A DNA stretch of 57,055 bases from a virus. Location: the IMG/VR virus record IMGVR_UViG_3300049216_000159, positions 1 through 57,055 of that record; one strand, 5' to 3'. Below the pieces are notes generated by a model that worked only from the letters and a program-made list of their open reading frames with translations, was not told the DNA's origin and made no database searches. How positions within the stretch are numbered: the first letter of the stretch is position 1; each line of letters starts with the position of its first letter. Both the position numbers and the translations under genes were made by a program. This document shows, in pieces, positions 1-57,055 of the stretch.

Positions 1-127
1 GCTGGCCTTCGATTGGCCGCCGTTCATCCAAACGCTCGCCATATGCTGAGCCGCTTTCGCCGCAGACTCCTTGCTCCCTCGTCGCCGGCTGTCGATGAAT
101 CGTCCCGCTTTGTAAAACTCCACGTGC
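1..127. repeat. Terminal direct repeat, left copy (circular-assembly overlap)
   Basis: These 127 bases are identical to the last 127 bases of the window (56929-57055). The length equals a common maximum assembler k-mer, and one open reading frame runs through the join without interruption. This is best read as the overlap left when a circular or circularly permuted genome is assembled, giving a unit length of 56,928 bp. A biological direct terminal repeat is less likely. Confidence 0.95.
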
Positions 128-5948: not shown

Positions 5949-6389
5949 ATGGCAGTCAGGCTCGACTATCTCGAAAACTCGAATGACGTGGAAATCACTT
6001 TTCTCGATAAGGTTCTCGAGGGCTGGGCCAATTGGACGAAAGAGGGGCGGCCTGGGCCGCAGCGCGAACAGCAGACTGGCGTGCTACTGGCAATCCCCTC
6101 GATCCTTGAAGGTGAGTACTACATCCGTTTGTCGGATGATGATTTTGTTCATTTGGAGCAGTGCATCAAGGCTTTGCCTGATCGGTTTTACGAAATCGTC
6201 GAACTGGAATACCGATGTTACTGGGACGGAATCATCCGGCCCGGTCTGTCGCAGGAGCAAAAATGGCGATTCTTGGGTGGCAAGCGATCGCCGTATCGCG
6301 ACCGATTGCGTGCTGCTCAGTCGATGCTTTATGGTCTGATGATGCCGGAGATCGAGCATTGGCGAGAGCGTCTGTTTAGAAAAACGTGA
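5949..6389 (+). CDS. Probable late-gene regulator (RinA/Q-like antiterminator or activator)
   Basis: A 146-residue protein at the exact boundary between early and late genes. Its C-terminal half, with YEIVELEYRCYWDG, QEQKWRFLGGKRS and a terminal helix RLRAAQSMLYGLM, resembles the sigma region-4-like helix-turn-helix of RinA and ArpU-type late regulators. The long control region that follows, with several inverted repeats and then the structural genes, fits such a role. A lambda Q homologue is not obvious, so the mechanism (activation versus antitermination) is open. Confidence 0.6.
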   Translation: MAVRLDYLENSNDVEITFLDKVLEGWANWTKEGRPGPQREQQTGVLLAIPSILEGEYYIRLSDDDFVHLEQCIKALPDRFYEIVELEYRCYWDGIIRPGLSQEQKWRFLGGKRSPYRDRLRAAQSMLYGLMMPEIEHWRERLFRKT

Positions 6390-6734
6390 GTCGCCTCACG
6401 TTGTAAAATTTGCAAACTGTCGACAGTCCCTGTAGAAATCTCCCTCAGATTTGTCTTACAGACCCCGAAATGACCGCCTATCAGGCGGTGTTTGCGTTTC
6501 TGGGTTGCGCAAATCTCCCAAACATCGGCCCTAAACCCGCCGGCGTATTCCCCTGACCTCCCTGGGGGAATTTCTTCACGATGAGTCATCCCCTTATCGG
6601 AAGTCCATTCGGCCGCGCCTGAAAAACGCGGCCTTTTTCGTTTCACGCAGCGCTGACTTCGGTCGGCCCTGCCGCCGGGTGAAATTCCCGGCCGCGAATT
6701 TTAAACACCCCCTTGATCCCCGAAGGACGGCCTC
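6390..6734 (+). promoter_or_regulatory. Late control region between early and structural genes
   Basis: A 345-bp stretch without a convincing gene. It holds a 7-bp hairpin overlapping the end of the upstream gene (6384-6401), a perfect 12-bp palindrome ACTGTCGACAGT (6416-6427), a hairpin with GC-rich arms and a T-rich tail (6473-6489), another hairpin (6548-6570) and a strong intrinsic-terminator shape (6611-6638). The stacking of palindrome and terminators just upstream of the virion genes is what a late promoter with an antitermination target would look like. No clear -35/-10 pair was identified. Confidence 0.55.
6611..6638 (+). terminator. Intrinsic terminator before the structural operon
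   Basis: A 7-bp GC stem (GGCCGCG with CGCGGCC) and a loop of nine bases, followed by TTTTT at 6634-6638. It would stop early transcription unless modified polymerase reads through. Confidence 0.75.
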
Positions 6735-7634
6735 ATGAACCTGTCGAATTACGTGACGAATCGTCTGATTGATGGCCAGTATCGCGGCGGCGCGCTGACC
6801 TCGGCCGGCGCGGCCGGCTCCTCTGCGGTTGTGGCTGGTGTTTGGGCCGCGACCACCGCCTATACGCTGGGCCAAGTGGTCGTGCCGCCTTCGACCTTCA
6901 CGGCAGGCGGCGGAAAATTTCTTCGCTGCACCACCGCCGGCACCAGCGGTAGTACAACCACGCTGGCCGTGCCGAATCCCGGCAGCACACTGACCGATGG
7001 CTCCGTGACTTGGACCGCGGTTTCCGGCATCCCGTGTGATCTTGCGCATTACGTGTCGCTGCTCACCATCAACAAAGGCCTTCGCGCGAACTCGACCGCG
7101 TATGCGTCCGGCGATTGCATGTCGCTCACTCCTACCGGCGGCGCCGGCGGGGACACGAACCAGCATCTGTACCGCTGCACCACGGCGGGCACCAGCGCCT
7201 CATCGCAGCCGACGACCTATCTCGGCGTCGACGGTGAAGCCATCACGGATGGCACGGCCGTGTTCACCGAGCTCTCGCCAGTACTCAAGACAGGCACGGG
7301 TTTTCCGTCGGGACTTGCGGAGGTCTCCGGATCCGCGTACGCACGGGTCAAGATCGAAGCGGGAAGCTATCCGGCACTCACCGACTTCGCGGCGACCCAG
7401 GGCGGCAGCTCGGCGAGCACCGGCACCACCGCGACCACCAGCAACAGCAACTCGATCACATTTCCGACCTCGACCGGCGCGTGGGGCATCGTCGGCGCCT
7501 ACGAACTGCGCGATCAGCTTACGGGCGGTAATTCGTTGGGCTTCGGAATTCTGTCGACGCCGCAGAACATTTCTGCGACCGGCAATACGCCGTCGTTTGC
7601 GGGCAATCAGCTGACGATCAAGCAAGATAATTAA
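6735..7634 (+). CDS. Virion fibre/decoration-type protein with repeated carbohydrate-binding-like modules
   Basis: A 299-residue Ala/Gly/Ser/Thr-rich protein, first of the structural genes. Two copies of a motif common in phage tail fibres and decoration proteins, roughly W-x-x-x-T-x-Y-x-x-G followed by RCTTAGTS and a TDG-x-x-x-W/F end, lie at about residues 35-95 and 115-178. A Ser/Thr/Asn-rich linker (about 220-245) leads to a C-terminal beta-rich segment. The same motif recurs once in the gene at 10089. Probably a surface-exposed virion protein; no fold-specific catalytic residues are seen. Confidence 0.6.
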   Translation: MNLSNYVTNRLIDGQYRGGALTSAGAAGSSAVVAGVWAATTAYTLGQVVVPPSTFTAGGGKFLRCTTAGTSGSTTTLAVPNPGSTLTDGSVTWTAVSGIPCDLAHYVSLLTINKGLRANSTAYASGDCMSLTPTGGAGGDTNQHLYRCTTAGTSASSQPTTYLGVDGEAITDGTAVFTELSPVLKTGTGFPSGLAEVSGSAYARVKIEAGSYPALTDFAATQGGSSASTGTTATTSNSNSITFPTSTGAWGIVGAYELRDQLTGGNSLGFGILSTPQNISATGNTPSFAGNQLTIKQDN

Positions 7635-23908: not shown

Positions 23909-24688
23909 ATGTCCAATACGAACTCGGTCCCGCAGGCGCTCTTCGGCCCCGGCATTCTTTATTTGACGCGAACGGATGTCACGCCGTCGACGCCGTTCAA
24001 CGTCGGCTTTGTGAACGAGTTCTCGATCGATATTTCGTTCGACACCAAGCAGCTGTTCGGTCAGAACCAGTATCCGTTGCTCGCCGCTCGCGGCACCGCG
24101 AAAGCGACCGGCAAGATCAAGGCCGCGACGTTGTCCGGCCAGGCGCTCAATTCACTGCTGATAGGCGGCTCATGGACCACGGGCACGCAGTACGAAATGA
24201 ACACCACGGCCGCGACTGCGATTCCGGCGACCCCGTTCCAAATTACGCCGACCGTACCCAATACCGGCACGTGGAATGCCGACTTGGGCGTCGTCAACGC
24301 CGCCAACAACGAGCCGCTGCTCAAAGTGACAAGCTCTCCCACGGCGGGACAATATTCCGTCTCGGCGGGCCTTTACACCTTCTCATCGGCTGATCAAGTG
24401 GCGGGCATTTCCGTGATCATCACTTTTGCCTACACGTACACGACCGGTGCGACCGGTCAGAACCAGATCCTGAACAACAACCTGATCGGCACCACGCCGA
24501 CCTTCCAGCTGGATTACAAGTCCACGCTGTACGGCGCGACCTACTACCTGCGCTTGTTCCAGGCGATCGGCGGCAAGTTCGCACTCGCGCACAAGATCAC
24601 CGATTTCGTCATGCCCGAATATGACTTCGATTTCTTCGCGAACTCCGCGCAACAGATCGGCCTGATGAGTCTCGCGACGCAGGCGTAA
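23909..24688 (+). CDS. Major tail (tube) protein, copy 1
   Basis: A 259-residue protein with GAGGAG-type ribosome site upstream. Two long beta-hairpins (NVGFVNEFSIDISFD, PTFQLDYKSTLYG) and a final MPEYDFDFFANS are the tube-forming fold of siphovirus tails. Within the window it has a paralogue at 39525 that matches almost without gaps. It stands in the canonical place, ahead of the chaperone and tape measure. Confidence 0.85.
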   Translation: MSNTNSVPQALFGPGILYLTRTDVTPSTPFNVGFVNEFSIDISFDTKQLFGQNQYPLLAARGTAKATGKIKAATLSGQALNSLLIGGSWTTGTQYEMNTTAATAIPATPFQITPTVPNTGTWNADLGVVNAANNEPLLKVTSSPTAGQYSVSAGLYTFSSADQVAGISVIITFAYTYTTGATGQNQILNNNLIGTTPTFQLDYKSTLYGATYYLRLFQAIGGKFALAHKITDFVMPEYDFDFFANSAQQIGLMSLATQA

Positions 24689-24830
24689 CTGTTTTCGATG
24701 TTGATCCCGGCCCGGCAGGCCGGCTTCGCACCTCACAGGTCCTTTACGGGGCATCGGCGGGAAACCGTCGATGGGCGAGCGGTTTCTGCCGGTATCGCTC
24801 GCTTACCCCACCCTTTGAGGTTTTCTGGAT

Positions 24831-39524: not shown

Positions 39525-40391
39525 ATGGCCGCTGTAGCCCCGTGGGATTTCTCAGACAGCGGTGCGACCTTCGACAATCCCGGCTACACGTTCGATGGCG
39601 GCGTGCCGGCCACGGCCAGCGGCGGCGTATCGCCTCAAGCCTTGTTCGGCCCCGGCATCCTGTGGGTGACTCGCACCGACGTCGCCAATGCCACGCCGAT
39701 CAATATCGGGTTCGTCAACGAATTCAGCGTCGATATTTCGTTTGACGTGAAATCCTTCTACGGCCAAAGCCAGTACCCGATTCTGATGGCTCGAGGCCAG
39801 GCCAAATCGACGGGCAAGGTGATTGCTGGGACGGCATCAGGTCGGGCACTGGATTCCATGCTGATGAACGGGGCTTGGACCACCGGTCAGCAGTACGACC
39901 TGACGACCACGGTCGCGACCGCCATACCCGCCTCGCCTTTCCAAATCACACCGACGGTTCCGTTTTCGGGCACGTTTGACACGGACCTAGGCGTGTTCAA
40001 TTCCGCGACCGGCCAACCCATGACGAAGGTGACTTCAACGCCGACGGCCGGTCAATACGCGGTCTCCGGCGGCGTATACACCTTCTCATCGGCCGACCAG
40101 TTATCGGGATACTCGGTCATCATCACGTTCGCCTATCGGTACACCAGTGGCGCGAGCGGGCAGAACCAGATTTTCACGAACCAGCTGCAGGGCGTGACGC
40201 CGACGTTGCAGGTCGACTACAAATCGACGCTGTTCGGAATGACGTACTACTTGCGGCTGTTCGCGGCCACGGGCAGCAAGACGGCGATCCAGCACAAAGT
40301 GTCCGACTTCGCGATGCCGGAATACGACTTCGACTTTTTTGCCAATGCCTTGAGCCAAGTCGGGCTGATCAGCCTGGCGACGCAGGCCTAG
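39525..40391 (+). CDS. Second major tail (tube) protein, copy 2
   Basis: A 288-residue protein whose residues 38-288 align without visible gaps to the major tail protein at 23909 (shared QALFGPGIL, GFVNEFS(I/V)DISFD, PFQITPTVP, MPEYDFDFFAN). By eye about two thirds of positions are identical. It has a 37-residue Asp/Gly/Pro-rich N-terminal extension absent in copy 1. GAGG precedes the ATG. Its stop overlaps by four bases the end of the convergent XRE gene. The distance from the tail operon and the extension suggest a specialised tube or decoration role. Confidence 0.8.
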   Translation: MAAVAPWDFSDSGATFDNPGYTFDGGVPATASGGVSPQALFGPGILWVTRTDVANATPINIGFVNEFSVDISFDVKSFYGQSQYPILMARGQAKSTGKVIAGTASGRALDSMLMNGAWTTGQQYDLTTTVATAIPASPFQITPTVPFSGTFDTDLGVFNSATGQPMTKVTSTPTAGQYAVSGGVYTFSSADQLSGYSVIITFAYRYTSGASGQNQIFTNQLQGVTPTLQVDYKSTLFGMTYYLRLFAATGSKTAIQHKVSDFAMPEYDFDFFANALSQVGLISLATQA

Positions 40392-40621
40392 CCGATCTGG
40401 CGCTTCAGATCGACCAGGCGCTCCATCGCCAACATGACGACGCGTGGCACCTTATCGCCGGCGCAATAACCCCGCATTGTTCGCTCGTTGATGTCGAGCT
40501 CTCGAGCAGCTCCGCGCTGAGTCAAGCCTGCGCGTTCAATCAAGCTCCGCATTTGGTCGGCGTCTGACGGCGCGGAATAATCCACGGCCGGACGCACGAC
40601 AACTTTGTCGATCGCATTCAT
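40388..40621 (-). CDS. XRE-type regulator next to RadC
   Basis: A 77-residue protein: a short N-terminal arm and a helix-turn-helix (MRSLIERAGLTQRGAARELDINERTMRGYCAGD). Downstream of radC and likely co-transcribed; a long GC hairpin lies between them (40661-40690). An inverted repeat AGGGC-CTTAT-GCCCT fills the spacer of the radC promoter and could be its operator. Confidence 0.75.
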   Translation of the reverse strand: MNAIDKVVVRPAVDYSAPSDADQMRSLIERAGLTQRGAARELDINERTMRGYCAGDKVPRVVMLAMERLVDLKRQIG

Positions 40622-43404: not shown

Positions 43405-44385
43405 TCACTCCCTCGGCTTCGCCTTCACGGCGCCCCTCAAGTAATACCGCTTCGTCGTCGAGACATCGGCATGCCCGAGCCGATCTCGAGCTTCCTCGGC
43501 CGTCGCCGCCCCATCCGCCGACACGCTGCGCAGATCATGAAACGTGAACCTCGTCGCGCCCGTCTTCGCATACTTCACCATCAGCCGCTGCCAGATCGCC
43601 GAAAAGCCGTCCTGCGTGTACGGCTTTCCATTGCGCTGCCGGATCAGGTATTGGTTCGGAATATCCGGTTTGAACGCCTTCAGCCGGGCGACGATCGCGT
43701 CCATGGCCGCGCTGCGCGTCATGTCGATCTTCGCGCCCGTCTTGCTTTGCTGGATGTGCAGCTCGTCGGTCAGGTCGCTGTGCCTCAACGTCAGAAGGTC
43801 GCCGCGGCGCTGCCCGATGTTCACGGCTAGGTCGATCGCCGCGGCCATGCGTGGGTTCGCCAAGGCCTTCAGGGCTTCGACCTGGGCCATGGTGACTTGC
43901 TGACGCTTCGGGCTGCGGTCGAGTTCGATGCCGCGCACCGGGTTGCCTGTCGCGATTCCCCATTTGATCGCTTTCCCGAACACATGGCCCAAAAGCGAAA
44001 TCTCGTGCCGCGCGGCGATCGGCACGCGCTTGCCGTCCTTCGACCGCCTGGCGTCGGCATATTTGTAGCAGTGCTGCGCGGTCACGTTGTCGGGCAGGAA
44101 ATGACCAAAAGCGATTTTCAGCCGGTCGAGCTGCTTGGCTTGGTCATCGCGAGTCTGTTCGCTGCGTTTGAGCGGCAGGACCTCGGCGCGGTAACGGTCA
44201 ATCACGTCACCCAGCGTGCGGCCGCTCCAGTTGGCGCCGATCAGGCTGGCGTATTTGGTCAGCGCTATACCCAAATCGCGACCAAGATTGGCTCGAGGAC
44301 GTCTAGGGGCGCGAAAGTAGTATGAGCCGTGCTCAAGGTACATCCGAGCCGGCAGATGCCTTTGAGTTTTCCTTGTTCTGCCCAT
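43405..44385 (-). CDS. int: Tyrosine integrase
   Basis: A 326-residue recombinase; ATG 44385 overlaps the upstream stop (TGATG), and a TTG at 44400 is the alternative. N-terminal arm-binding domain (LPARMYLEHGSYYFR), a SAM-like core-binding region (about 60-150), and the catalytic part with NIGQRRGDLLTLRHSDL (Arg), FTFHDLRSVSADG (His-x-x-Arg) and LGHADVSTTKRYY (His, Tyr nucleophile). It should recombine the tRNA-Arg core at about 41419-41464 with the host. Unusually it is at the distal end of the PL operon. Confidence 0.92.
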   Translation of the reverse strand: MGRTRKTQRHLPARMYLEHGSYYFRAPRRPRANLGRDLGIALTKYASLIGANWSGRTLGDVIDRYRAEVLPLKRSEQTRDDQAKQLDRLKIAFGHFLPDNVTAQHCYKYADARRSKDGKRVPIAARHEISLLGHVFGKAIKWGIATGNPVRGIELDRSPKRQQVTMAQVEALKALANPRMAAAIDLAVNIGQRRGDLLTLRHSDLTDELHIQQSKTGAKIDMTRSAAMDAIVARLKAFKPDIPNQYLIRQRNGKPYTQDGFSAIWQRLMVKYAKTGATRFTFHDLRSVSADGAATAEEARDRLGHADVSTTKRYYLRGAVKAKPRE

Positions 44386-44726
44386 CAATAAAAATCCCAA
44401 AAATTCCAGACAAGCTCTGGCTTTCCAAAGAGCAATGTCGAACTGATCCCAATGCGCAAAATGACTCTGCCGACGGATGGCGTGACCTTCTGCTCATGCC
44501 GAATCAACTTAATCGTGACCTTCCGGTAGTCAAGAAGACTTGACGGAAGATTGTCGGGTAAATTTTCAATAACGAACTCGATCAAGTCTCGATTCTTCCC
44601 CGCAACCTTGATAGGAGGCTCGCTTTCCGACGCACGCCAAATGAGCGAACCGGGAGCCTTGTCAATCCAGGTTGGATCCCCATTCGTTATTGCCGTGCAC
44701 TGATCATCTTCAATCGTGCTACCCAT
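44385..44726 (-). CDS. Hypothetical protein upstream of integrase
   Basis: A 113-residue protein with no cysteine outside the N terminus, a Trp-rich middle and a hydrophobic C-terminal end (VGRVILRIGISSTLLFG). Its stop overlaps the integrase start by one base, suggesting coupled translation. Role unknown; an excisionase would be expected smaller and more basic. Confidence 0.5.
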   Translation of the reverse strand: MGSTIEDDQCTAITNGDPTWIDKAPGSLIWRASESEPPIKVAGKNRDLIEFVIENLPDNLPSSLLDYRKVTIKLIRHEQKVTPSVGRVILRIGISSTLLFGKPELVWNFWDFY

Positions 44727-47284: not shown

Positions 47285-47503
47285 TTACCTCCGTGGTTTT
47301 TTGGTGGGCACGAGTTCTTCGGCGACCGCTCGGACGACCGCTTTTGGAAAGGCAAAGTGTTGCGCGCAGCGCGAGCACATCCCGCGGCCGCCAACGGGTG
47401 AGACTGTCCAGCCACACGGGCCGGACGGCGTTTCGCAGGGCGTAAACTCGGTGCAGCCACAGGCGACGCAATAGGGCATTTCGATGAGGATCACGGCGCT
47501 CAT
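47285..47503 (-). CDS. Small zinc-ribbon-like protein
   Basis: Seventy-two residues with YCVACGCTEFTPCETP and MCSRCAQHF, two paired-cysteine knuckles and one more Cys (CGWT). Its ATG overlaps the stop of the ParB-like gene by four bases. Likely metal-stabilised; role unknown. Confidence 0.55.
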   Translation of the reverse strand: MSAVILIEMPYCVACGCTEFTPCETPSGPCGWTVSPVGGRGMCSRCAQHFAFPKAVVRAVAEELVPTKKPRR

Positions 47504-49116
47504 TTCTTGGACTTGGCTTTCTTTGCGACTTTCGCCGGTGCAGTGACCTTCGGCACATCCGCCTTGACCTTCTTGACGTCGACGCCGAGCGTTTTCGCAG
47601 CCTTGGTCAGCTGCGCGACCTCCGCATCCAGATCAGACGGCAAATCCTCGATCAGCTCCAGTTCGAATATCAGCTGACGCAGCTGGCTGTCGGTAAGCTT
47701 CGGGACCTTATCGAAACTGTCGGCGTCCCAACCCCAGGCCGTGAAGAACCCCTGCGGCACGTTGTAGGCATTGTCGATCTGACGCTCGACGAGTTTCAGG
47801 AGCGTCGCGCGCTCGATCTGCGTCGGCGCATTCTTGTGGATCGCGATCAGCAGCCGGTCGCGAAAAGCGGTCTGCTCGGCCTCCTTCGCGGGATCAACCT
47901 TCTTTCTCGGCAACGCGCTGCCGTAGGGTGAACTGCCCTTGGCGTGTTCCTCAAGCGTGCCGAGCTTCCGTGCGGCTTTTACGGCCTCGTCCATCTTGAC
48001 GACTTCGACAATCTCGCCGGTCTTCGGCATCTGCAGGAGTTGGATGACGTCGGACTTCTTGCCGAGCAGCTGCTTGAACGTGCGACCCTTGGCGTCTTGG
48101 GTGCAGAACCGATCCAGCGTCGCGAAACCATTGGTTACCCAGCCGCCGGGCGCTACCTTCTTAGCCTCTGGTCCCACGATCACCGCGCGGCCGGATTGTT
48201 TGGCCTCGGCGATCTGCAGCTTTGACCAGACTTCGCGCTTGAGTTTGAAGCAGGCGGGATCTGTGCAGACGTCTCCACTTTTGATGTCGGCGAACAATTC
48301 AGGATGATTCCCGGTGCGTTTCGGGCAGGGACCGCAGGCGCCGGCCTTCGGCAGCAGATCGGCATCACCCGTCGGAAAGCTCGCATCAGCCAGGCGCAGC
48401 ATGTACTCGCGCTCGATGAAGTCGCGCGCTTGGCGATACGACATCGGCTCACCGTCATACCCCTGCGTGATTTTGCCGGCCGCCTCGCGCTGGCTGGCCG
48501 GATCCGCCATGCGAGACAGCAGCAACGCCGTGGAGGCGGTGAGCTTGCCGCGATAGAACATTTCGCGCGCCGCGGGTCCGAGCGCCGAGAGTTTCATCCG
48601 GCCGTAGACGTAGGATTTGGACTTGCCGACCTTGTCCGCAATTTCCTCGGCGGTATGCCCGAGCCGCTGCAGCTGCTCGTACCCTTCAGCCTCCGCCAGC
48701 TCGTGCAGGCCTTCGCGCTGCAGGTTCTCGACCAGCTGGATCTCCAGGACCTGCTCGTCGGTCAGCTCGCGCACGTCCACCGCGATCGCCTCGAGGCCTG
48801 CGGACTTCGCCGCCATGAAGCGCCGCTCGCCGGCGACGATCTCGAATGTATTCTTCGCGGCCTCCTTGGCCTCATCAGGCGAGAAGTAAGTCTTGCCGCC
48901 AACACGAATGCCATTCAACCCTGGGGTGCTTACCATCGGCACGTTGCGCGCAATGATCGGCGACAGCAGCCCCAGCGTCTTGATGCTCTCGCCGAGTTCC
49001 TTGATGGCCGCTTTGTCGAAATGGGCCCGGCGCTCGGCCTGGGAGCCGGTTTGCGAAAGCGTAAGGGCGTCGAGCGGAATATGCCGCACGCTGCCGAGTT
49101 CGACGTTGACACTCAT
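47500..49116 (-). CDS. Large ParB/KorB-like protein of the DGR operon
   Basis: A 538-residue protein starting in an ATGA overlap with the reverse transcriptase stop. Residues 1-110 are a ParBc domain (HIPLDALTLSQTG, GLLSPIIARNV, IVAGERRFMAAKSAGLEAI). Residues about 125-215 form a helix-turn-helix block (LQREGLHELAEAEGYEQL, AEEIADKVGKSKSYVYGRMKL). A four-Cys motif (ACGPCPKRTG ... CTDPACFKLK) lies near 275-305, and the end is Lys-rich. Long phage ParB-like proteins of this type are regulators or plasmid-like partition proteins; translational coupling to the RT is notable. Confidence 0.85.
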   Translation of the reverse strand: MSVNVELGSVRHIPLDALTLSQTGSQAERRAHFDKAAIKELGESIKTLGLLSPIIARNVPMVSTPGLNGIRVGGKTYFSPDEAKEAAKNTFEIVAGERRFMAAKSAGLEAIAVDVRELTDEQVLEIQLVENLQREGLHELAEAEGYEQLQRLGHTAEEIADKVGKSKSYVYGRMKLSALGPAAREMFYRGKLTASTALLLSRMADPASQREAAGKITQGYDGEPMSYRQARDFIEREYMLRLADASFPTGDADLLPKAGACGPCPKRTGNHPELFADIKSGDVCTDPACFKLKREVWSKLQIAEAKQSGRAVIVGPEAKKVAPGGWVTNGFATLDRFCTQDAKGRTFKQLLGKKSDVIQLLQMPKTGEIVEVVKMDEAVKAARKLGTLEEHAKGSSPYGSALPRKKVDPAKEAEQTAFRDRLLIAIHKNAPTQIERATLLKLVERQIDNAYNVPQGFFTAWGWDADSFDKVPKLTDSQLRQLIFELELIEDLPSDLDAEVAQLTKAAKTLGVDVKKVKADVPKVTAPAKVAKKAKSKK

Positions 49117-50381
49117 GGGTTCCCCTTTCGTAAGAATTGCCGCAGCCACGGAAATTCGAGGCCGATCCGCCTTCGGACTTTCCAGGTGCTGGCGTGACTG
49201 AAATGACCGGCGTAGCTTGCGATGACCGATCGCAGCTTCTCTTGCGCCGCCGGCCGCGATTGATTGCGCATCGGCCAGGTTCGAAGCTTCTGGCGCAGAT
49301 GTCCGATGACGCGCCGGCGCACCACTCGATGGCTTGGGTAAATGACGTAGCCCAAGAAATCGCAGCCAGCGGATAGCGGCTTGAGCTTGACGTCAGCTTT
49401 GAGCTCTAGCCGCAGGCGAGATCGCAGGAATTGCGTGATCCCCGTGTGCCAGGCCTGCAGCTGCTCCCGGTCCCGATGGACCATCACAAGGTCATCGACG
49501 TACCGAAGGTACCGCTGCGCTTTCAGCTCATGCTTGACGAATTGATCCAGCGCATCGAGGTAGACGTTGGCAAAGAACTGACTGGACAGGTTGCCGATCG
49601 CCAGCCCGCATCCCGGTGCCGCATTCTCCAGGCGTTTGTGCGCAGGAACCTTGGCGCGCTCGGCCTCTGTCCCGATAAACGTGACGCCGCCGGCGACCGG
49701 TGACTGCTTGAGCAGCGCGTGCGTTGCGCGGCGCGCCTCGATCGGCAGGCCTTGTATCCGCGCCTTGAGCATCGCATACAGCGTCGGCCGATGAATGGAG
49801 TTGAAGAAATTGCGGATGTCCAGCTGCAGGTACCAGCCGCCGCCTTGGCCGGAGTGCACCTGGCGCATGAAGTCGGTCAGGCGGTCAACGGCGGCGTGAG
49901 TGCCTTTGCCTTGGCGGTTTGAGTAGCTGTCGAAAATGAACTTGGGCTCGTAGATCGCCTCGAGCTGCGGCACCAGCCAGTGATGCACGACGCGATCGCG
50001 AAACGGGGGCGCGTGGATTTCGCGCGCTTTTGGCGCCGTCGCGATGAAGCAGGTCGGCTTGCCCGGAGTCCAGCTGCCTGCCACGAGATCCCGCTGCAGC
50101 TCGATCAGCCCATCGATCCAGTAGGCATCGAAGCTCAGCTGATCAGGGCTCGGTTTCTTGCCGCGGCGGGCCCGCGCCCAAGCAGAGTGGAGGCTTCGGA
50201 AAGAAACCGCGTCGCGACACTCACCGGCGCGAACCGCGCGAACGTGGTTGTGATTCGTCTGGTTGTTCCTGTTGACGTTGCCATTGTGCAGGTTGACGTT
50301 CCACGCGTAGTCCGAGGGAAACGCTAACTCAGGCACTTTCGACCCTGATGCACATCCGTGTGGGTAGCGCATCCTCGTCAT
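49113..50381 (-). CDS. Diversity-generating retroelement reverse transcriptase, with TR in its 5' coding region
   Basis: A 422-residue RT: motif A LQLDIRNFF (Asp 188), the DGR-typical IGNLSSQ (262-268), YVDD (294-297) and CDFLGYVI (340-347). ATG 50381 overlaps the Avd stop (ATGA). Residues 22-53 are encoded by the 96-bp TR itself. No ATG, GTG or TTG occurs in frame between the TR and the RT domain, so translation must pass through the TR, giving an N-terminal tail that mirrors the variable lectin end. It copies TR RNA with adenine errors; cDNA replaces the variable repeats. Confidence 0.95.
   Translation of the reverse strand: MTRMRYPHGCASGSKVPELAFPSDYAWNVNLHNGNVNRNNQTNHNHVRAVRAGECRDAVSFRSLHSAWARARRGKKPSPDQLSFDAYWIDGLIELQRDLVAGSWTPGKPTCFIATAPKAREIHAPPFRDRVVHHWLVPQLEAIYEPKFIFDSYSNRQGKGTHAAVDRLTDFMRQVHSGQGGGWYLQLDIRNFFNSIHRPTLYAMLKARIQGLPIEARRATHALLKQSPVAGGVTFIGTEAERAKVPAHKRLENAAPGCGLAIGNLSSQFFANVYLDALDQFVKHELKAQRYLRYVDDLVMVHRDREQLQAWHTGITQFLRSRLRLELKADVKLKPLSAGCDFLGYVIYPSHRVVRRRVIGHLRQKLRTWPMRNQSRPAAQEKLRSVIASYAGHFSHASTWKVRRRIGLEFPWLRQFLRKGNP
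50223..50318 (-). repeat. DGR template repeat (TR), 96 bp
   Basis: Sense orientation contains 26 adenines, mostly in nine AAC/AAT codons plus CAC, TAC, ACG, AGG. It aligns base by base with VR1 (50834-50929) and VR2 (51431-51526). The 3' 22 bases (GTTCGCGCGGTTCGCGCCGG) contain no adenine and are the GC-rich initiation segment; right after it TR reads GTGAG where both VRs read GTCAG. The whole repeat is in frame with the RT, codons 22-53. Confidence 0.97.
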
Positions 50382-50806
50382 GTGGTTGCCTCATGGGCGA
50401 CCTGAGTACTCAGTGTTTGGGCACGCTGCGAGGGATCGCGATCCTTCGCATTCTGGCCACTCGACTGCAATTTCTTCAGCCAGCCTCCACTCTGCTGCCC
50501 TAACTCATTGACCATCTTGGCGAGCGCCTCAAACTCGGCGAAGCTGCCGAACGCCTTGACCGCTTTGCCCAGCTGCATCGATATCTTCAGATCATCGACG
50601 GCGCTGCAGAGCTCCTCGACCCGCGCCAGGCGCTGATTGGGATCGCGCCAAGCCTTGTGCACGCACCGGGCGACTTGCATCGCATAGGCGCGAAGATCCG
50701 CACCGATGCTGTACTTGTGATACCGCGGAAACCGCCGCACGGCGTTCTCCACATCGGTCAAGATGCGGTGAGACAGCCGTGCTATGGGCGGTGCGCGGTT
50801 AAACAC
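50378..50806 (-). CDS. avd: Avd-like accessory variability determinant
   Basis: A 142-residue basic, helical protein from GTG 50806. ENAVRRFPRYHKYSIGADLRAYA, AVDDLKISMQLGKAVKAFGSFAEFEAL and LGQQSGGW are the conserved helices of DGR Avd four-helix-bundle proteins, which form a positively charged pentamer that binds the RT and TR RNA. The C-terminal 30 residues are hydrophilic and variable. It lies between the two targets and the RT, in order. Confidence 0.93.
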   Translation of the reverse strand: MFNRAPPIARLSHRILTDVENAVRRFPRYHKYSIGADLRAYAMQVARCVHKAWRDPNQRLARVEELCSAVDDLKISMQLGKAVKAFGSFAEFEALAKMVNELGQQSGGWLKKLQSSGQNAKDRDPSQRAQTLSTQVAHEATT

Positions 50807-50809
50807 AGG

Positions 50810-51391
50810 TCAGAGTCCAAGGTCCAAGGGCTGACCGGCGCGAACCGCGCGAACGTGGCCGCGACCCGGCTGGCCGTTCCTGTTGACGAGGCCAAAGTGC
50901 AGGTCGACGAGCCACGCGCAGTCCGAGGGACTTTCCGCATCGACCGTCGAAGTCCATTCCCATGACGAACCGCCGGCATCAAATTCCGAATACAGCGCGG
51001 GGCCGACCTTCGAATAATCGACGATGGACACCCGTTCTTTGACCGTCGGCGCGCGCCAGCCGTCCTTGCCAAAAAGGCGATACTCGGCGCAGGCCTTGAG
51101 CGCATCTTTCCAAGCGAGTGAGCCGCATTCGAGCGGCGCGATGGTCCAGGTGAGATTCGTCTGCGCGTCGTAGACCGCGACGCCACCGGTCGTCACGACA
51201 TTGCCGTGAAGGTCGTAGCGGGTGAAGCGCGGCGGTTCCGCGGCCGTGGCTGCCTCTACGGGCTTGCCGGGCGTCGGCGGCGCCTCATCGTTGGCGCAGA
51301 TCGAGGCGGCGATCGCGAACAGGTCCGCCGCGCTGGCCATCTGGATTCGATCAGCGAGCAGCTTGCGGATATCGCGGGCGAGTGCATTCAT
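50810..51391 (-). CDS. DGR target 1, DUF1566/C-type-lectin variable protein
   Basis: A 193-residue protein. Residues 1-55 are a helical then Pro/Ala-rich N-terminal part of unknown role, not a signal peptide. The lectin-like DUF1566 domain follows: LTWTIAPLECGSLAWKDAL, DGWRAPTVKER, SSWEWTST, ending in HVRAVRAG. Residues 155-186 are the VR; positions 4, 7, 9, 12, 14, 16, 18, 19, 21-25 of it can vary. AGGAA precedes the ATG by nine bases. Encoded away from the tail genes. Confidence 0.92.
   Translation of the reverse strand: MNALARDIRKLLADRIQMASAADLFAIAASICANDEAPPTPGKPVEAATAAEPPRFTRYDLHGNVVTTGGVAVYDAQTNLTWTIAPLECGSLAWKDALKACAEYRLFGKDGWRAPTVKERVSIVDYSKVGPALYSEFDAGGSSWEWTSTVDAESPSDCAWLVDLHFGLVNRNGQPGRGHVRAVRAGQPLDLGL
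50834..50929 (-). repeat. Variable repeat VR1
   Basis: Differs from TR at 16 of 96 positions, every one at a TR adenine (sense strand). The other 10 adenines and all 70 non-adenine positions are unchanged. A 6-bp inverted repeat (50808-50813 with 50831-50836) lies immediately 3' of it. Confidence 0.97.
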
Positions 51392-51421
51392 GGTTGTGGT
51401 TCCTGTCGCAATGCCAAAGGT

Positions 51422-51850
51422 CTAGTACTGACCGGCGCGAACCGCGCGAACGCGGCCGTGAAACGCCTGGTAGCGCCTGCCGACGTAGCCAAGGTGCAGG
51501 CCGACGACCCACGCGCAGTCCGAGGGAGCTTCAGCATCCGGAGTGGAAGTCCAGATCCACTCGTAGTCCTCGAAGTCGGGAAAGAAGCTTTTGTCCACCG
51601 CCGGATACTTGGAGCGATCCGGAATGAACATTGCTTCCTCGACGGTCGGCAGTCGCCAAGACCAGCCATAGATGTCGAGGGATTCGGCCCATTCCTTGGC
51701 TTTCTTCCAGGTCAGTTGGTTCGGCGCATGCAGCGCAGTGACGATGAACGGCGTTGCGAGCATCGGATGGCTGATGCGCACGGCTTGGTGGTCGGTGGCA
51801 TCTGCGGGTAGATCGGTGCCGTCGGCGGCGAGTTTGGTGTAGGTGGTCAT
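51422..51850 (-). CDS. DGR target 2, DUF1566/C-type-lectin variable protein
   Basis: A 142-residue protein from ATG 51850, with AAGGGA upstream. After about 45 residues a DUF1566 lectin-like domain appears: NQLTWKKAKEWAESLDIYG, WRLPTVEEA, EWIWTST, ending HGRVRAVRAG. Residues 109-140 are the VR. Shorter N-terminal region than target 1 and no similarity there, so the two targets present the same variable end on different bodies. Confidence 0.93.
   Translation of the reverse strand: MTTYTKLAADGTDLPADATDHQAVRISHPMLATPFIVTALHAPNQLTWKKAKEWAESLDIYGWSWRLPTVEEAMFIPDRSKYPAVDKSFFPDFEDYEWIWTSTPDAEAPSDCAWVVGLHLGYVGRRYQAFHGRVRAVRAGQY
51431..51526 (-). repeat. Variable repeat VR2
   Basis: Differs from TR at 19 of 96 positions, all of them TR adenines; no other base differs. 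A 4-bp inverted repeat (GGTC at 51419-51422 with GACC at 51430-51433) lies at its 3' edge. Confidence 0.97.
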
Positions 51851-51879
51851 CGGTATCCCTTCGTTGTTTTCGAACTTGT

Positions 51880-52992
51880 CTACGATGCTTCGGCTTGCGC
51901 CTCGAGCGAGGCCATGCGGTCGTGGTAGAACGCCTCGACGTTGAGCGGAACCATCGCCAGCGAGTTCTGGATCGCTTCCCAGGCGTTGCGCAGCTGCTCG
52001 ACATCGGTCGGCGCCCTCAGTGCGGCGACCAGAGTGTCCGCGTCGACCGGTGCGAGCCGTCGCGCCGCGCCTTCCGAAGCCTCTTTCAAGCGAGCCTTGT
52101 CGGGCGCCTTGGCGGACTTCCACAGTTCGCCCCGGCGCTTCTCCAGCGGGGCGAGCTCATCGCTCGATACACATTTGGCGTAATCGGCCACGAGCTCGTC
52201 GATCCCCGATGCGCTCTTGTCGCCGCCGGCGGCCCAGCGCGCCAGGCGCTCGCCGATCTCCTCGGAGAATTGCACGGGATTCGTCCGATCAAAGATTGGG
52301 GCGAACTGTGTCGGCAGCTTCATGACCGCGCGTTCGCTGTCCATGGATGATTGCCAAACCGGCTTGCCGTCGGAGCCTGGTAGCAGCAAGGCCTGCAGCA
52401 CCATCTCGTACATAAACTCATCGCCGCAGATCGGCTGCCAGCCGAGCGGCACCGGATCCTTGCCGGGCACAATCTTGATTTTCTCTTTCGCGCGGAAGGT
52501 CATGATCAGGTTGACGTTCAGCTGCAGCAGTTCGTTGATGAGACGCCGGCGCGCGGTTTTGGGCGGTCCCCACGCGGCCATCTGCGCTTTTTCGGGCGAC
52601 GTCTTCCAGCGCTTGGCGAGCGCATCGGTCTCGGTTTTGTGCCATTCCAGCACGCCTCCCGGACCTTCGTGCTCGTGACTCATTGAGTCGATGATCACGG
52701 TCTTCGATCCGCGGCGCGCGCAGAAACGGACCGCCTCAAGGTAATCGTCGGGCGAGAAAGGCGCGCCGAATCGCAGATGGTTGAACTTGAACCTGTCTGC
52801 GTAATACAGCGCGCGACCGTTTTCGGTGTCGATGAAATCGATGTCACCACCGCACACTCGCTGGATGCCGGTGGCCAGGCGCAGCGCGGAGTAGGTCTTA
52901 CCGCTCGAGGACGGACCGACCAAGCCGATGAGCAGGCCGACCGTCTTGCGCACGGCCGGTGCGATTTCAAATTGTCGTACGGATGCATTCAT
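51880..52992 (-). CDS. RecA/Sak4-like AAA ATPase
   Basis: A 370-residue protein. Walker A is GPSSSGKTYSALRLA (about 25-39), the Walker B/Ser region KTVIIDSMSHEHEG (about 96-109), and RFGAPFSP, LINELLQLNVNLIMTFRAKEK are typical of the Sak4-type single-strand annealing and recombination ATPases. The C-terminal 120 residues are helical. With the exonuclease encoded next upstream in transcription, it forms the phage homologous-recombination pair. Confidence 0.88.
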   Translation of the reverse strand: MNASVRQFEIAPAVRKTVGLLIGLVGPSSSGKTYSALRLATGIQRVCGGDIDFIDTENGRALYYADRFKFNHLRFGAPFSPDDYLEAVRFCARRGSKTVIIDSMSHEHEGPGGVLEWHKTETDALAKRWKTSPEKAQMAAWGPPKTARRRLINELLQLNVNLIMTFRAKEKIKIVPGKDPVPLGWQPICGDEFMYEMVLQALLLPGSDGKPVWQSSMDSERAVMKLPTQFAPIFDRTNPVQFSEEIGERLARWAAGGDKSASGIDELVADYAKCVSSDELAPLEKRRGELWKSAKAPDKARLKEASEGAARRLAPVDADTLVAALRAPTDVEQLRNAWEAIQNSLAMVPLNVEAFYHDRMASLEAQAEAS

Positions 52993-53855
52993 GCAGCTTC
53001 ATCTCCAATTTCTTGATTGATGACGTATTGCGGCGGAATCAGGGTGATCGCGCCGTCGGTGTAGCCGGGCCAGGGATAACTGCCCTCGGTCAGCAATTTG
53101 TCCCAGAGAGTCAGGGCTCGATTCCAGCGCCGCTGGCCGATCTCATGGTGATAGCCGTCGAGACGCGCGGGCACGACTTCGTAGGGCGGCTCGGTCTCGC
53201 AAAAAAGAAAAACGAAATCGGTGCGGCCGACCGCGTCCGGAAACAGTTGCTCGTAAGCGCGCGTGTAGGCCACGCGCTGGATGTCGTAGCCGTATTCGAC
53301 GATCTTGCGCGCGATGTCCTTCGGGTTCGCGGACGCCACCTTCTTGATGTCGTAAATGGTGTGATCGTCGCGAAACTGATCGATGCGACAGCGGCAGAGT
53401 ACTTCGCGATCGCGTTTCCACTGGTCGGCGTAGTCGGTGAATTCGATGGCGACTTCCGAGTGACCGCCGAACGGGAATCCCTGATCCTTGGCGTTCTTGA
53501 AAATGCGCTCGGCCGCGAAGGCAAGCTTTTCGAATTTGTGCGCCAGAATGGCGATCTTGCCGCCGGCCTGAATGATCTCGCGCGCATCTTTGGCCGCCTT
53601 GGTGCGCCAATCGTCGGCGACCACCATCTCAAATTGCGCGCCGGCGCCGAGCAGCAGCTTATGCAGGATTGCGCCTTCATCCATGGCGTTGGTCGCGACG
53701 CGGTCCACGTTACCACCCAAGCGCGGATGCTCGAGCCAGGCATGCCGGGGCGATTCGGTCACCAGCGTGTGGGCGATGGACTGCGTCAGGGACGGCCGCA
53801 CGCAAGGATCCGCGAAGTACTGCGCCTCGGTGACGTTGAGGATTTGAGCGCTCAT
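52989..53855 (-). CDS. PD-(D/E)XK exonuclease of the recombination module
   Basis: A 288-residue protein from ATG 53855. SPRHAWLEHPRLGG at the start, AILHKLLLGAGAQFEMV, AEVAIEFTDYADQWKRDREVLCRCRIDQFRDDHTIYDIKKV with the Asp...Asp-x-Lys triad is the YqaJ/RecE/DUF3799-type alkaline exonuclease (the segment quoted spans about residues 143-183). It produces 3' single strands for the annealing ATPase encoded after it. ATGA overlaps on both sides. Confidence 0.9.
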   Translation of the reverse strand: MSAQILNVTEAQYFADPCVRPSLTQSIAHTLVTESPRHAWLEHPRLGGNVDRVATNAMDEGAILHKLLLGAGAQFEMVVADDWRTKAAKDAREIIQAGGKIAILAHKFEKLAFAAERIFKNAKDQGFPFGGHSEVAIEFTDYADQWKRDREVLCRCRIDQFRDDHTIYDIKKVASANPKDIARKIVEYGYDIQRVAYTRAYEQLFPDAVGRTDFVFLFCETEPPYEVVPARLDGYHHEIGQRRWNRALTLWDKLLTEGSYPWPGYTDGAITLIPPQYVINQEIGDEAA

Positions 53856-54715
53856 GCAGCGTGCTTCATCCCAAGTTTGGCCTCGTGATAGGGCAGAGAC
53901 ACAGGCAATCCTTCTAACGTGCGCCACTTCGTGTACAAATCAATCAAGAACATCTTGACCATGTAGCGCATCGCCATATTGTGGCGCCGGCCCTTGCTTT
54001 TTTCGGCGTGGCCGGGATGTTGCTCAAGCCTATGTTTGTAGCCGTCGTAAATGTCTCGGTACTTGTTGGGCGTCGCTTTTAGAAAACTCGATGCGAGGAC
54101 ACCAACCAATTTGGTTTTGAGAAACGGATTGAACGTGATCCCGTTGCGCTTCGCCGCTTCGCCGTCCTTGTTGATGTAGTAGCGCTCGACAAGATGTTCT
54201 GTCCTGCGGCTTCGTCCTTTGCCATCGCCCGCGACGTCCAGACCGGCGTACTTCCAAAGACTGGATGGATGTCGCGCTTTCGCAATGTCGATTTCACTGA
54301 TGATGACGCCAGCCATCGCAGGGCCAATGCCTTTGATCGGCTCTAGGAATTCATTGAAGATGGGGAAATCCTCAAGAACCGCGGTTAGCCGCCGAAAATG
54401 TTTTTTCTCCTGGTCATCGAGTTCAACGTATTCCGCGATCAAGCAGAGTTCGGTGTATGAATCGATGACGCCGTCTGCCTTGAACTTGGCGCGCACCGGA
54501 AACTTTGCCACGCCATCGGTCAGCAGTTTGTAATGCTTGCGCAGGCGATCAAGAATTTCGCGACCCTCGGCGTCGATGGAATATTCGTCAGCGCCAGGCG
54601 CTTGGCCTAGTTTCACCTTAAATGTTCCCACGATCCGATTGCCCATTTGGATTCGCAATTTCTGGATGTCGTAAGCACCGCGCACCATCGTCTTCAAATT
54701 GTCTCGATTGTTCAT
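53852..54715 (-). CDS. Stand-alone IS110-type transposase C-terminal domain protein
   Basis: A 287-residue protein from ATG 54715. Residues about 130-235 match the Transposase_20 end of IS110-family enzymes: FLEPIKGIGPAMAGVIISE, SSLWKYAGLDVAGDGKGRS (Ser-containing loop), NPFLKTKLVGVLASSF and a basic terminal region. The RuvC-like DEDD N-terminal half of IS110 transposases is absent; residues 1-130 are helical and different. It is preceded by the 54718-55267 repeat array. The last array unit (AGCGAGACA) abuts the ATG. I infer an RNA- or DNA-binding role. Confidence 0.75.
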   Translation of the reverse strand: MNNRDNLKTMVRGAYDIQKLRIQMGNRIVGTFKVKLGQAPGADEYSIDAEGREILDRLRKHYKLLTDGVAKFPVRAKFKADGVIDSYTELCLIAEYVELDDQEKKHFRRLTAVLEDFPIFNEFLEPIKGIGPAMAGVIISEIDIAKARHPSSLWKYAGLDVAGDGKGRSRRTEHLVERYYINKDGEAAKRNGITFNPFLKTKLVGVLASSFLKATPNKYRDIYDGYKHRLEQHPGHAEKSKGRRHNMAMRYMVKMFLIDLYTKWRTLEGLPVSLPYHEAKLGMKHAA

Positions 54716-54717
54716 GT

Positions 54718-55267
54718 TGTCTCGCTTAGTGTCATTGGGTTGCTGAAGTTTCTTGGCGCGCTTGTTCACTGCGGGTTACTGCAGTCCAACGGCACGCTAA
54801 GTGTTTTTGGGCTTCTGTGGTTCTCTGGCACGCTTCGCGTTGATTGGGTTACTGGTATCTCATGGCACGCTAGGCATTGATGGGCTTCTGACGCGAGATG
54901 GCTCGCTTGATCATACTGGGTTACTGCAATCGACTGGCCCGCTCGATGATCTTGGGTTGCTTGAACCGCATGGCTCGCTGACACTGCGTGGGTTGCTTTA
55001 GACTGCTGGCTCGCTGAGATTACGTGGGTTACTACTGACTTCCGGCTCGCTCGTATACCTTGGGTTGCTTCTCCATCGTGGCTCGCTAAATGCGAGTGGG
55101 TTGCTGTGCTTTCTTGGCTCGCTTCACCAGAATGGGTTGCTGGAACGCCGTGGCGCGCTTCTAGATACTGGGTTGCTGTACACGGTAGGCTCGCTGTGTG
55201 CCCCTGGGTTGCTCGGTAAGGATGGCTCGCTGAGAGGCGTTGGATTGCTACTTCATGCTGACTCGCT
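54718..55267 (-). repeat. Regular 9-base repeat / 9-base spacer array
   Basis: Read leftward, 31 nine-base units alternate between AGCGAGCCA-like and AGCAACCCA-like forms, separated by spacers of exactly nine bases (one of ten); every spacer is different. Conserved units are strict at the A/B alternation and lack T; variants such as AGCGTGCCA, AGTAACCCA, AGAAGCCCA concentrate near the gene end. The period of 18 does not match helical phasing. The array is not CRISPR-like. It occupies most of the 54716-55307 gap, immediately 5' of the transposase-domain gene. Confidence 0.95.
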
Positions 55268-55305
55268 TCGCTACTTTGGTTTTCTTGCGCTCTGTGGCAA
55301 ATCAT
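54766..55305 (-). CDS. Possible hexapeptide-repeat ORF encoded by the array
   Basis: One frame is open through 24 of the array units (179 residues) and repeats A-S-(H/Q)-x-x-x-A-T-(H/Q)-x-x-x. It starts two bases after the preceding stop without a Shine-Dalgarno, and the single 10-base spacer shifts the frame near its end. Both other frames contain stops. The strict GCG/GCA alternation at wobble positions argues for a nucleic-acid function rather than protein; the open frame argues the other way. Undecided. Confidence 0.35.
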   Translation of the reverse strand: MICHRAQENQSSEASQHEVAIQRLSASHPYRATQGHTASLPCTATQYLEARHGVPATHSGEASQESTATHSHLASHDGEATQGIRASRKSVVTHVISASQQSKATHAVSASHAVQATQDHRAGQSIAVTQYDQASHLASEAHQCLACHEIPVTQSTRSVPENHRSPKTLSVPLDCSNPQ

Positions 55306-56890: not shown

Positions 56891-57055
56891 GGTTGCTTTC
56901 CTTTACCAAAGTCTGTGCCGGGTTTATCGCTGGCCTTCGATTGGCCGCCGTTCATCCAAACGCTCGCCATATGCTGAGCCGCTTTCGCCGCAGACTCCTT
57001 GCTCCCTCGTCGCCGGCTGTCGATGAATCGTCCCGCTTTGTAAAACTCCACGTGC
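56887..57055 (-). CDS. 3' part of the junction-spanning small gene (second copy)
   Basis: This is the same gene as at 1-216: the terminal repeat duplicates part of it, and here the frame runs from the window end to TGA at 56887-56889. The last 14 residues (from about Asp 73) exist only in this copy. Closing the circle gives the full 85-residue protein. Confidence 0.75.
   Translation of the reverse strand, partial: HVEFYKAGRFIDSRRRGSKESAAKAAQHMASVWMNGGQSKASDKPGTDFGKGKQP
56929..57055. repeat. Terminal direct repeat, right copy
   Basis: Exact copy of bases 1-127; see the left copy. It should be removed to obtain the circular genome. Confidence 0.95.

What the first reader, a model, noticed from the sequence alone, without database searches (positions are those of the whole stretch)
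54718..55267. A 31-unit array of 9-base repeats with unique 9-base spacers
Conserved units alternate strictly between AGCGAGCCA and AGCAACCCA for about 550 bp, with 29 spacers of exactly nine bases, one of ten, and all spacer sequences distinct. Units drift toward AGCGTGCCA/AGTAACCCA at the end near the gene, so the array has grown or decayed directionally. It is too short in unit length for CRISPR, not phased for DNA bending, and transcribed in the direction of the gene it precedes. I know of no described element with this layout.
Basis: partly seen in the sequence, partly recalled or inferred. Interest (0 to 1): 0.92.

Follow-up and report, generated by a model that had tools for sequence, protein, structure and literature searches.

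The report
TIGR-TasA guide array in a phage
The strange array of nine-base repeats and nine-base spacers is a guide-RNA array of the TIGR-Tas type, an RNA-guided DNA-binding system of phages described in 2025, so it is a new example of a known kind rather than a new kind of element.

Summary
The layout is not new: it matches TIGR-Tas (Faure et al. 2025, PMC12045711). The adjacent gene (53852-54715, minus) passes the curated NCBIfam cut-off for TIGR-Tas and matches the solved TasR and TasH proteins by sequence and by predicted fold. It has no HNH or RuvC domain, so it is TasA, the nuclease-free form. Sixty-two related loci, nearly all viral, carry such an array beside tas. Across 60 arrays, edge-repeat bases covary between neighbouring edges and not within one edge, as expected if the two ends of one 36-nt guide pair. 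In sister arrays, spacers A and B of one guide are inherited together (123 of 146) far more often than neighbours across an edge (64 of 163), and whole guides come and go in the interior. No target was found above chance. Most likely it makes guides with which TasA binds and bends matching DNA without cutting it, probably against rival mobile elements; that role is inferred.

The parts
54718..55298 (-). TIGR dual-repeat array: 16 units of edge repeat (AGCGAGCCA type), spacer A, loop repeat (AGCAACCCA type), spacer B; read from 55298 down to 54718
   Evidence: Unit parse; layout as defined in PMC12045711
55295..55298 (-).
   Evidence: [quoted passage not shown]
55277..55285 (-). first loop repeat AGAAAACCA, of the form commonest in related arrays
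54718..54726 (-). last edge repeat AGCGAGACA, ending 2 nt before the tasA start codon; possibly also part of its ribosome-binding region (inference)
53852..54715 (-). tasA: Nop-domain TIGR-associated protein without nuclease domain, 287 aa
   Evidence: NCBIfam NF052498.1 126.6 bits, cut-off 100; PDB 9mty TasR E=1.5e-14 and 21kl TasH E=3.1e-5; fold search; no HNH or RuvC family

Best explanation
It is a dual-repeat TIGR array with its effector TasA. The array and tasA are probably transcribed together on the minus strand. The transcript is cut in the middle of each edge repeat into about 16 tigRNAs of 36 nt (half edge, spacer A, loop, spacer B, half edge) whose two ends pair. Each tigRNA sits on a TasA dimer and directs it to an 18-bp DNA site that reads spacer A followed by the reverse complement of spacer B, one spacer pairing to each strand. 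Lacking a nuclease, TasA would bind, unwind and bend the target without cutting it, and so hinder transcription, replication or maintenance of the target, most likely a rival phage or plasmid. Shown here: array anatomy, Tas membership, absence of a recognisable nuclease domain, covariation at the tigRNA ends, co-inheritance of spacer pairs. Inferred from published TasR, TasH and TasA work: expression, processing, DNA binding. Inferred only: the biological role (about 0.45 for action against rival mobile elements). The confidence given is for the RNA-guided TIGR-TasA identity and mode of action.
For: Array layout identical to the published definition. NCBIfam TIGR_Tas_endo 126.6 bits over a cut-off of 100; all 8 aligned relatives also match it. 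Sequence matches to solved TasR and TasH. AlphaFold2 model, mean pLDDT 77.6; its 11 best PDB matches are TasH and TasR, then IS110 recombinases, then weakly box C/D Nop5. No nuclease family in the protein. 62 related loci with dual-repeat arrays beside tas. Edge position 6 pairs with position 3 of the NEXT edge in 949/960 cases against 917 +/- 2.5 in shuffles, with no excess within one edge or two edges away. A-B spacers of one unit co-inherited 123/146 against 64/163 across edges.
Against: No RNA or binding data for this locus. No target above chance. The array does not end in a terminator, as published arrays typically do, but runs into tasA. The NCBIfam model is named for an endonuclease, which this protein does not appear to be.
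Confidence: 0.9

Rival explanations
1. Same TIGR-TasA machine, but aimed at the phage's own or its host's DNA as a regulator or architectural factor (for example helping integration, partition or gene control) rather than at rivals.
For: TasA lacks a nuclease; the phage is temperate-looking, with an integrase at 43405-44400 and a ParB at 47500-49149; Faure et al. suggest help to integrases and note TasA-ParB operons.
Against: No guide matches the own genome better than shuffled pairings. ParB lies about 5 kb away with other genes between, and is found beside tas in only one relative. Large guide turnover among sister phages fits changing targets better than fixed self-regulation.
Confidence: 0.3
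2. An IS110-type RNA-guided transposon whose bridge RNA region has become repetitive.
For: Weak matches to Transposase_20 and IS110 models; IS110 recombinases are the next best folds.
Against: IS110 score 24 bits against a cut-off of 140; only the profile stretch behind the catalytic domain is matched; TasR and TasH match far better by sequence and fold. The array units are those of TIGR.
Confidence: 0.02
3. A repetitive protein-coding stretch: 18 nt is six codons and an open frame runs through most of the array (54766-55305).
For: ORF of 179 aa listed.
Against: The ORF has no family match; 10-nt spacers break the frame here and in relatives; covariation acts between neighbouring edge repeats as in an RNA.
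Confidence: 0.01

Closest known systems
TIGR-TasA with dual-repeat array, e.g. Flavonifractor plautii FpTIGR (Faure et al. 2025, PMC12045711)
   Same: Alternating edge and loop repeats of 8-12 nt, 9-nt spacers, 36-nt period, truncated 5' edge, neighbouring Nop-domain protein without nuclease, phage setting
   Different: 16 guides (published arrays most often 5 to 15); array runs straight into the tasA start codon, without a terminator between; no biochemical data
TIGR-TasR (PDB 9mty) and TIGR-TasH (PDB 21kl, 9w04)
   Same: Same Nop and coiled-coil architecture by sequence and fold; box C-like CCA end in both repeats
   Different: No RuvC or HNH nuclease; repeats start AG rather than the UG published for TasR
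IS110 RNA-guided recombinases (IS621, ISCro4)
   Same: Distant homology of the RNA-binding part
   Different: No DEDD catalytic domain match; array of guides instead of one bridge RNA
Box C/D snoRNP protein Nop5
   Same: Nop-type fold, guide with two spacers between paired box motifs
   Different: Very weak fold match (E about 0.3); no fibrillarin or L7Ae partner looked for
CRISPR arrays
   Same: Direct repeats with unique spacers next to an RNA-binding effector gene
   Different: Two alternating 9-nt repeats, 9-nt spacers; effector is Nop-type, not Cas

Membership tests
TIGR-Tas | Two distinct alternating repeats of 8-12 nt | tested here: met
   AGCGAGCCA and AGCAACCCA types, strictly alternating
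TIGR-Tas | Spacers of about 9 nt, giving a 36-nt unit | tested here: met
   30 of 31 spacers between units are 9 nt, one is 10 nt
TIGR-Tas | Array adjacent to a gene for a Nop-domain Tas protein | tested here: met
   tasA starts 2 nt after the last edge repeat; NCBIfam NF052498.1 above cut-off; fold matches TasH and TasR
[quoted passage not shown]
   GCCA at 55298-55295
TIGR-Tas | Array typically ends with a 3' truncated edge and a rho-independent terminator | tested here: not met
   No terminator-like site on the minus strand after the array; array runs into tasA. Published as typical, not defining; 28 of 62 relatives have the array upstream of tas
TIGR-Tas | The two half edges at the ends of one 36-nt tigRNA base-pair, with covariation | tested here: met
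   Covariation between neighbouring edges only, in 60 arrays; within the window itself these positions hardly vary
TIGR-Tas | Processing to 36-nt tigRNAs bound by Tas | not testable with these tools
   Needs RNA sequencing
TIGR-Tas | Tandem-spacer targeting of both DNA strands | tested here: inconclusive
   No target above chance; spacer pairs are inherited together
TasA subtype | Solo Nop domain, no HNH or RuvC | tested here: met
   287 aa, no nuclease family; model starts directly with the long helix
IS110 transposon | DEDD catalytic domain and full-length IS110 profile match | tested here: not met
   24 bits against a cut-off of 140, profile positions 122-267 only
CRISPR-Cas | One repeat of about 25-36 nt with spacers of similar size, and cas genes | tested here: not met
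   Repeats and spacers are 9 nt and alternate; neighbour gene is Tas

The most novel reading that the evidence does not exclude
TIGR arrays of this clade renew their guides by gain, loss or exchange of whole tigRNA units (spacers A and B together) at interior positions, through recombination between edge repeats, and not by adding units at one end as CRISPR does. Where the array lies upstream of tasA, the last edge repeat overlaps the start region of tasA, so that processing of the array may feed back on TasA level.
Probability: 0.4. Interest if true: 0.55.

Novelty: new member of a known kind. Interest (0 to 1): 0.33.

Why it matters
It removes a claim of a new type of element and adds a complete-looking phage genome with a TasA system and 16 readable guides. 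The comparison of about 60 arrays bears on a question the discovery paper leaves open: how TIGR arrays arise and change. Co-inheritance of A-B spacer pairs and covariation between neighbouring edge repeats are independent evolutionary evidence that the 36-nt edge-to-edge unit is the working guide in these mostly nuclease-free systems.

Tried and rejected
Self-targeting: best matches of the 16 guides to the own genome are no better than shuffled pairings. Cross-targeting among about 660 kb of related loci with 1066 distinct guides: 45 hits with at most 2 mismatches in the expected order, 44-62 in wrong orders, 38-59 in shuffles with A-B pairings dealt anew within loci (counts of 0-2 mismatches). 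Exact target patterns in viral contigs: 1, 4, 0 and 2 stretches for four guides, against 6 for a wrong-order control; the four stretches for one guide fall into two unrelated genes. All at chance level. Plasmid collection: no Tas relative. Rfam: nothing in the window. Array as protein-coding repeat and locus as IS110 element: rejected (see rivals). A conserved partner gene of tasA: none of nine neighbouring proteins recurs in more than two related loci.

Full report
Observation. The array exists as described. On the minus strand 31 nine-base units run from 55267 to 54718, alternating AGCGAGCCA-type and AGCAACCCA-type, with 29 nine-base spacers, one of ten, all distinct. The array therefore spells 16 units of 36 nt. 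Self-identity at offset 36 is 0.60 in the array and at most 0.35 elsewhere in the window.

What it is. The layout is that of a dual-repeat TIGR array as defined by Faure et al. 2025 (PMC12045711; [quoted passage not shown] The gene at 53852-54715 (minus, 287 aa) begins 2 nt after the last edge repeat. It scores 126.6 bits against the curated NCBIfam model TIGR_Tas_endo (cut-off 100) and only 24 against IS110 (cut-off 140). It matches the solved TasR chain 9mty (E=1.5e-14) and TasH 21kl (E=3e-5) by sequence. Its predicted structure (mean pLDDT 77.6) has TasH and TasR as the 11 best matches in the PDB, followed by IS110-family recombinases and, weakly, box C/D Nop5. No nuclease domain is found, and the model begins directly with a long helix, so this is TasA, the nuclease-free form.

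Relatives. The scans returned 79 distinct viral loci and three loci in metagenome-assembled bacterial genomes. Of the loci examined, 62 have a dual-repeat array beside tas, 28 upstream and 34 downstream; a few of these are near-identical to each other. The unit parse was run on the tas strand only; the period-36 signal itself does not depend on strand. Edge consensus is AGCGAGCCA, AACGAGTCA or AGCGAGTCA in most loci, loop consensus AGAAAACCA or AGAAACCCA. Among 50,697 deposited phage records only one distant relative was found (Microcystis phage Mvi-JY20, 34% identity); none in plasmids.

Evidence that the 36-nt unit is the guide. If processing cuts in the middle of each edge repeat, the 3' half of edge k and the 5' half of edge k+1 become the two ends of one tigRNA and can pair. 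In 60 arrays, position 6 of edge k can pair with position 3 of edge k+1 in 949 of 960 cases, against 917 +/- 2.5 in shuffles within each locus (maximum of 500 shuffles: 925). Within one edge (968/1020 against 964 +/- 2.7) or two edges apart (860/900 against 857 +/- 2.4) there is no such excess. Positions 7 and 2 show the same more weakly (943/960 against 936 +/- 2, maximum 942). Related arrays are not fully independent, although near-identical loci were left out.

Array change. In sister arrays that share spacers (at most one mismatch), the next spacer is also shared in 123 of 146 cases when the two belong to one unit (A to B), but in 64 of 163 when they lie across an edge (B to next A). The pairs of loci overlap, so this is a strong trend rather than a clean test. 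L003 and L006 (tas 832 of 855 bases identical) differ by two internal 72-nt indels, each of two whole units, with both ends of the array the same. Other sister pairs show shared units in conserved order with whole units gained, lost or replaced inside the array. This does not fit growth at one end only. No other array shares four or more spacers with the window's.

Mechanism. By analogy with TasR, TasH and FpTasA (PMC12045711), the transcript would be processed to 36-nt tigRNAs bound by a TasA dimer and guided to DNA that reads spacer A followed by the reverse complement of spacer B. I derived that order from the published 8-nt 3' overhangs and the C-5 cleavage rule. TasA would bind and bend the site without cutting it. 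All steps from transcription onwards are inferred. The last edge repeat abuts the tasA start codon and no terminator-like site lies between array and gene, so array and gene are probably one transcript.

Targets. None was found above chance in the own genome, in about 660 kb of related loci with 1066 guides, or in the viral collection for four guides, where a wrong-order control gave more matches than any of them. With 18 informative bases, some exact matches are expected by chance in a collection of that size.

Verdict. A new member of a known kind. The added value lies in the comparative evidence on guide units and array turnover.

Noticed in passing
window 1-127 and 56929-57055: The two ends of the window are an identical 127-bp direct repeat, so the record is probably a complete phage genome (terminal redundancy or circular assembly), although the record carries no completeness estimate.
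   Followed up: partly
window 49113-52123: A diversity-generating retroelement: reverse transcriptase (49113-50381) and Avd (50378-50806), a template-like repeat at 50219-50319 and two variable-repeat copies at 50831-50930 and 51427-51527. Nearly all mismatches fall at template T on the plus strand, i.e. A on the minus strand, as in adenine mutagenesis. The variable copies lie at the C-terminal ends of two ORFs (50810-51391 and 51422-52123).
   Followed up: partly
window 50219-50319: The DGR template repeat lies inside the 5' part of the ORF called for the reverse transcriptase (49113-50381), so the true start of that gene is probably further downstream.
   Followed up: no
window 47500-49149: A ParB/PRTRC-like protein (549 aa) in the same leftward gene block, about 5 kb from tasA. 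Faure et al. report TasA-ParB operons; here the two are not adjacent, but one relative (L007) has a ParB match about 3.4 kb from its tas gene.
   Followed up: partly
window 23930-24716 and 39633-40419: A 787-nt stretch present twice at 68% identity, on the same strand, probably a duplicated gene.
   Followed up: no
window 43405-44400, 51880-52992, 52989-53927: Integrase, a RecA/AAA_24-type ATPase and a PDDEXK exonuclease (DUF3799, exonuclease VIII-like) lie in the same leftward block, tasA being next to the recombination genes.
   Followed up: no
L004, tas gene 5992-7053: This relative carries an insertion of some 60 residues in TasA between the GLDV and GRS motifs, perhaps an added loop or domain.
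   Followed up: no
L002:6931-7857: An array of 26 guides in which spacer B GCAATGGCA occurs three times and spacer A GAAAATGCG twice with different partners, and spacers are rich in purines on the RNA strand.
   Followed up: no
L055:4909-6645: A very long array of 97 units (about 48 guides) beside a tas gene.
   Followed up: no
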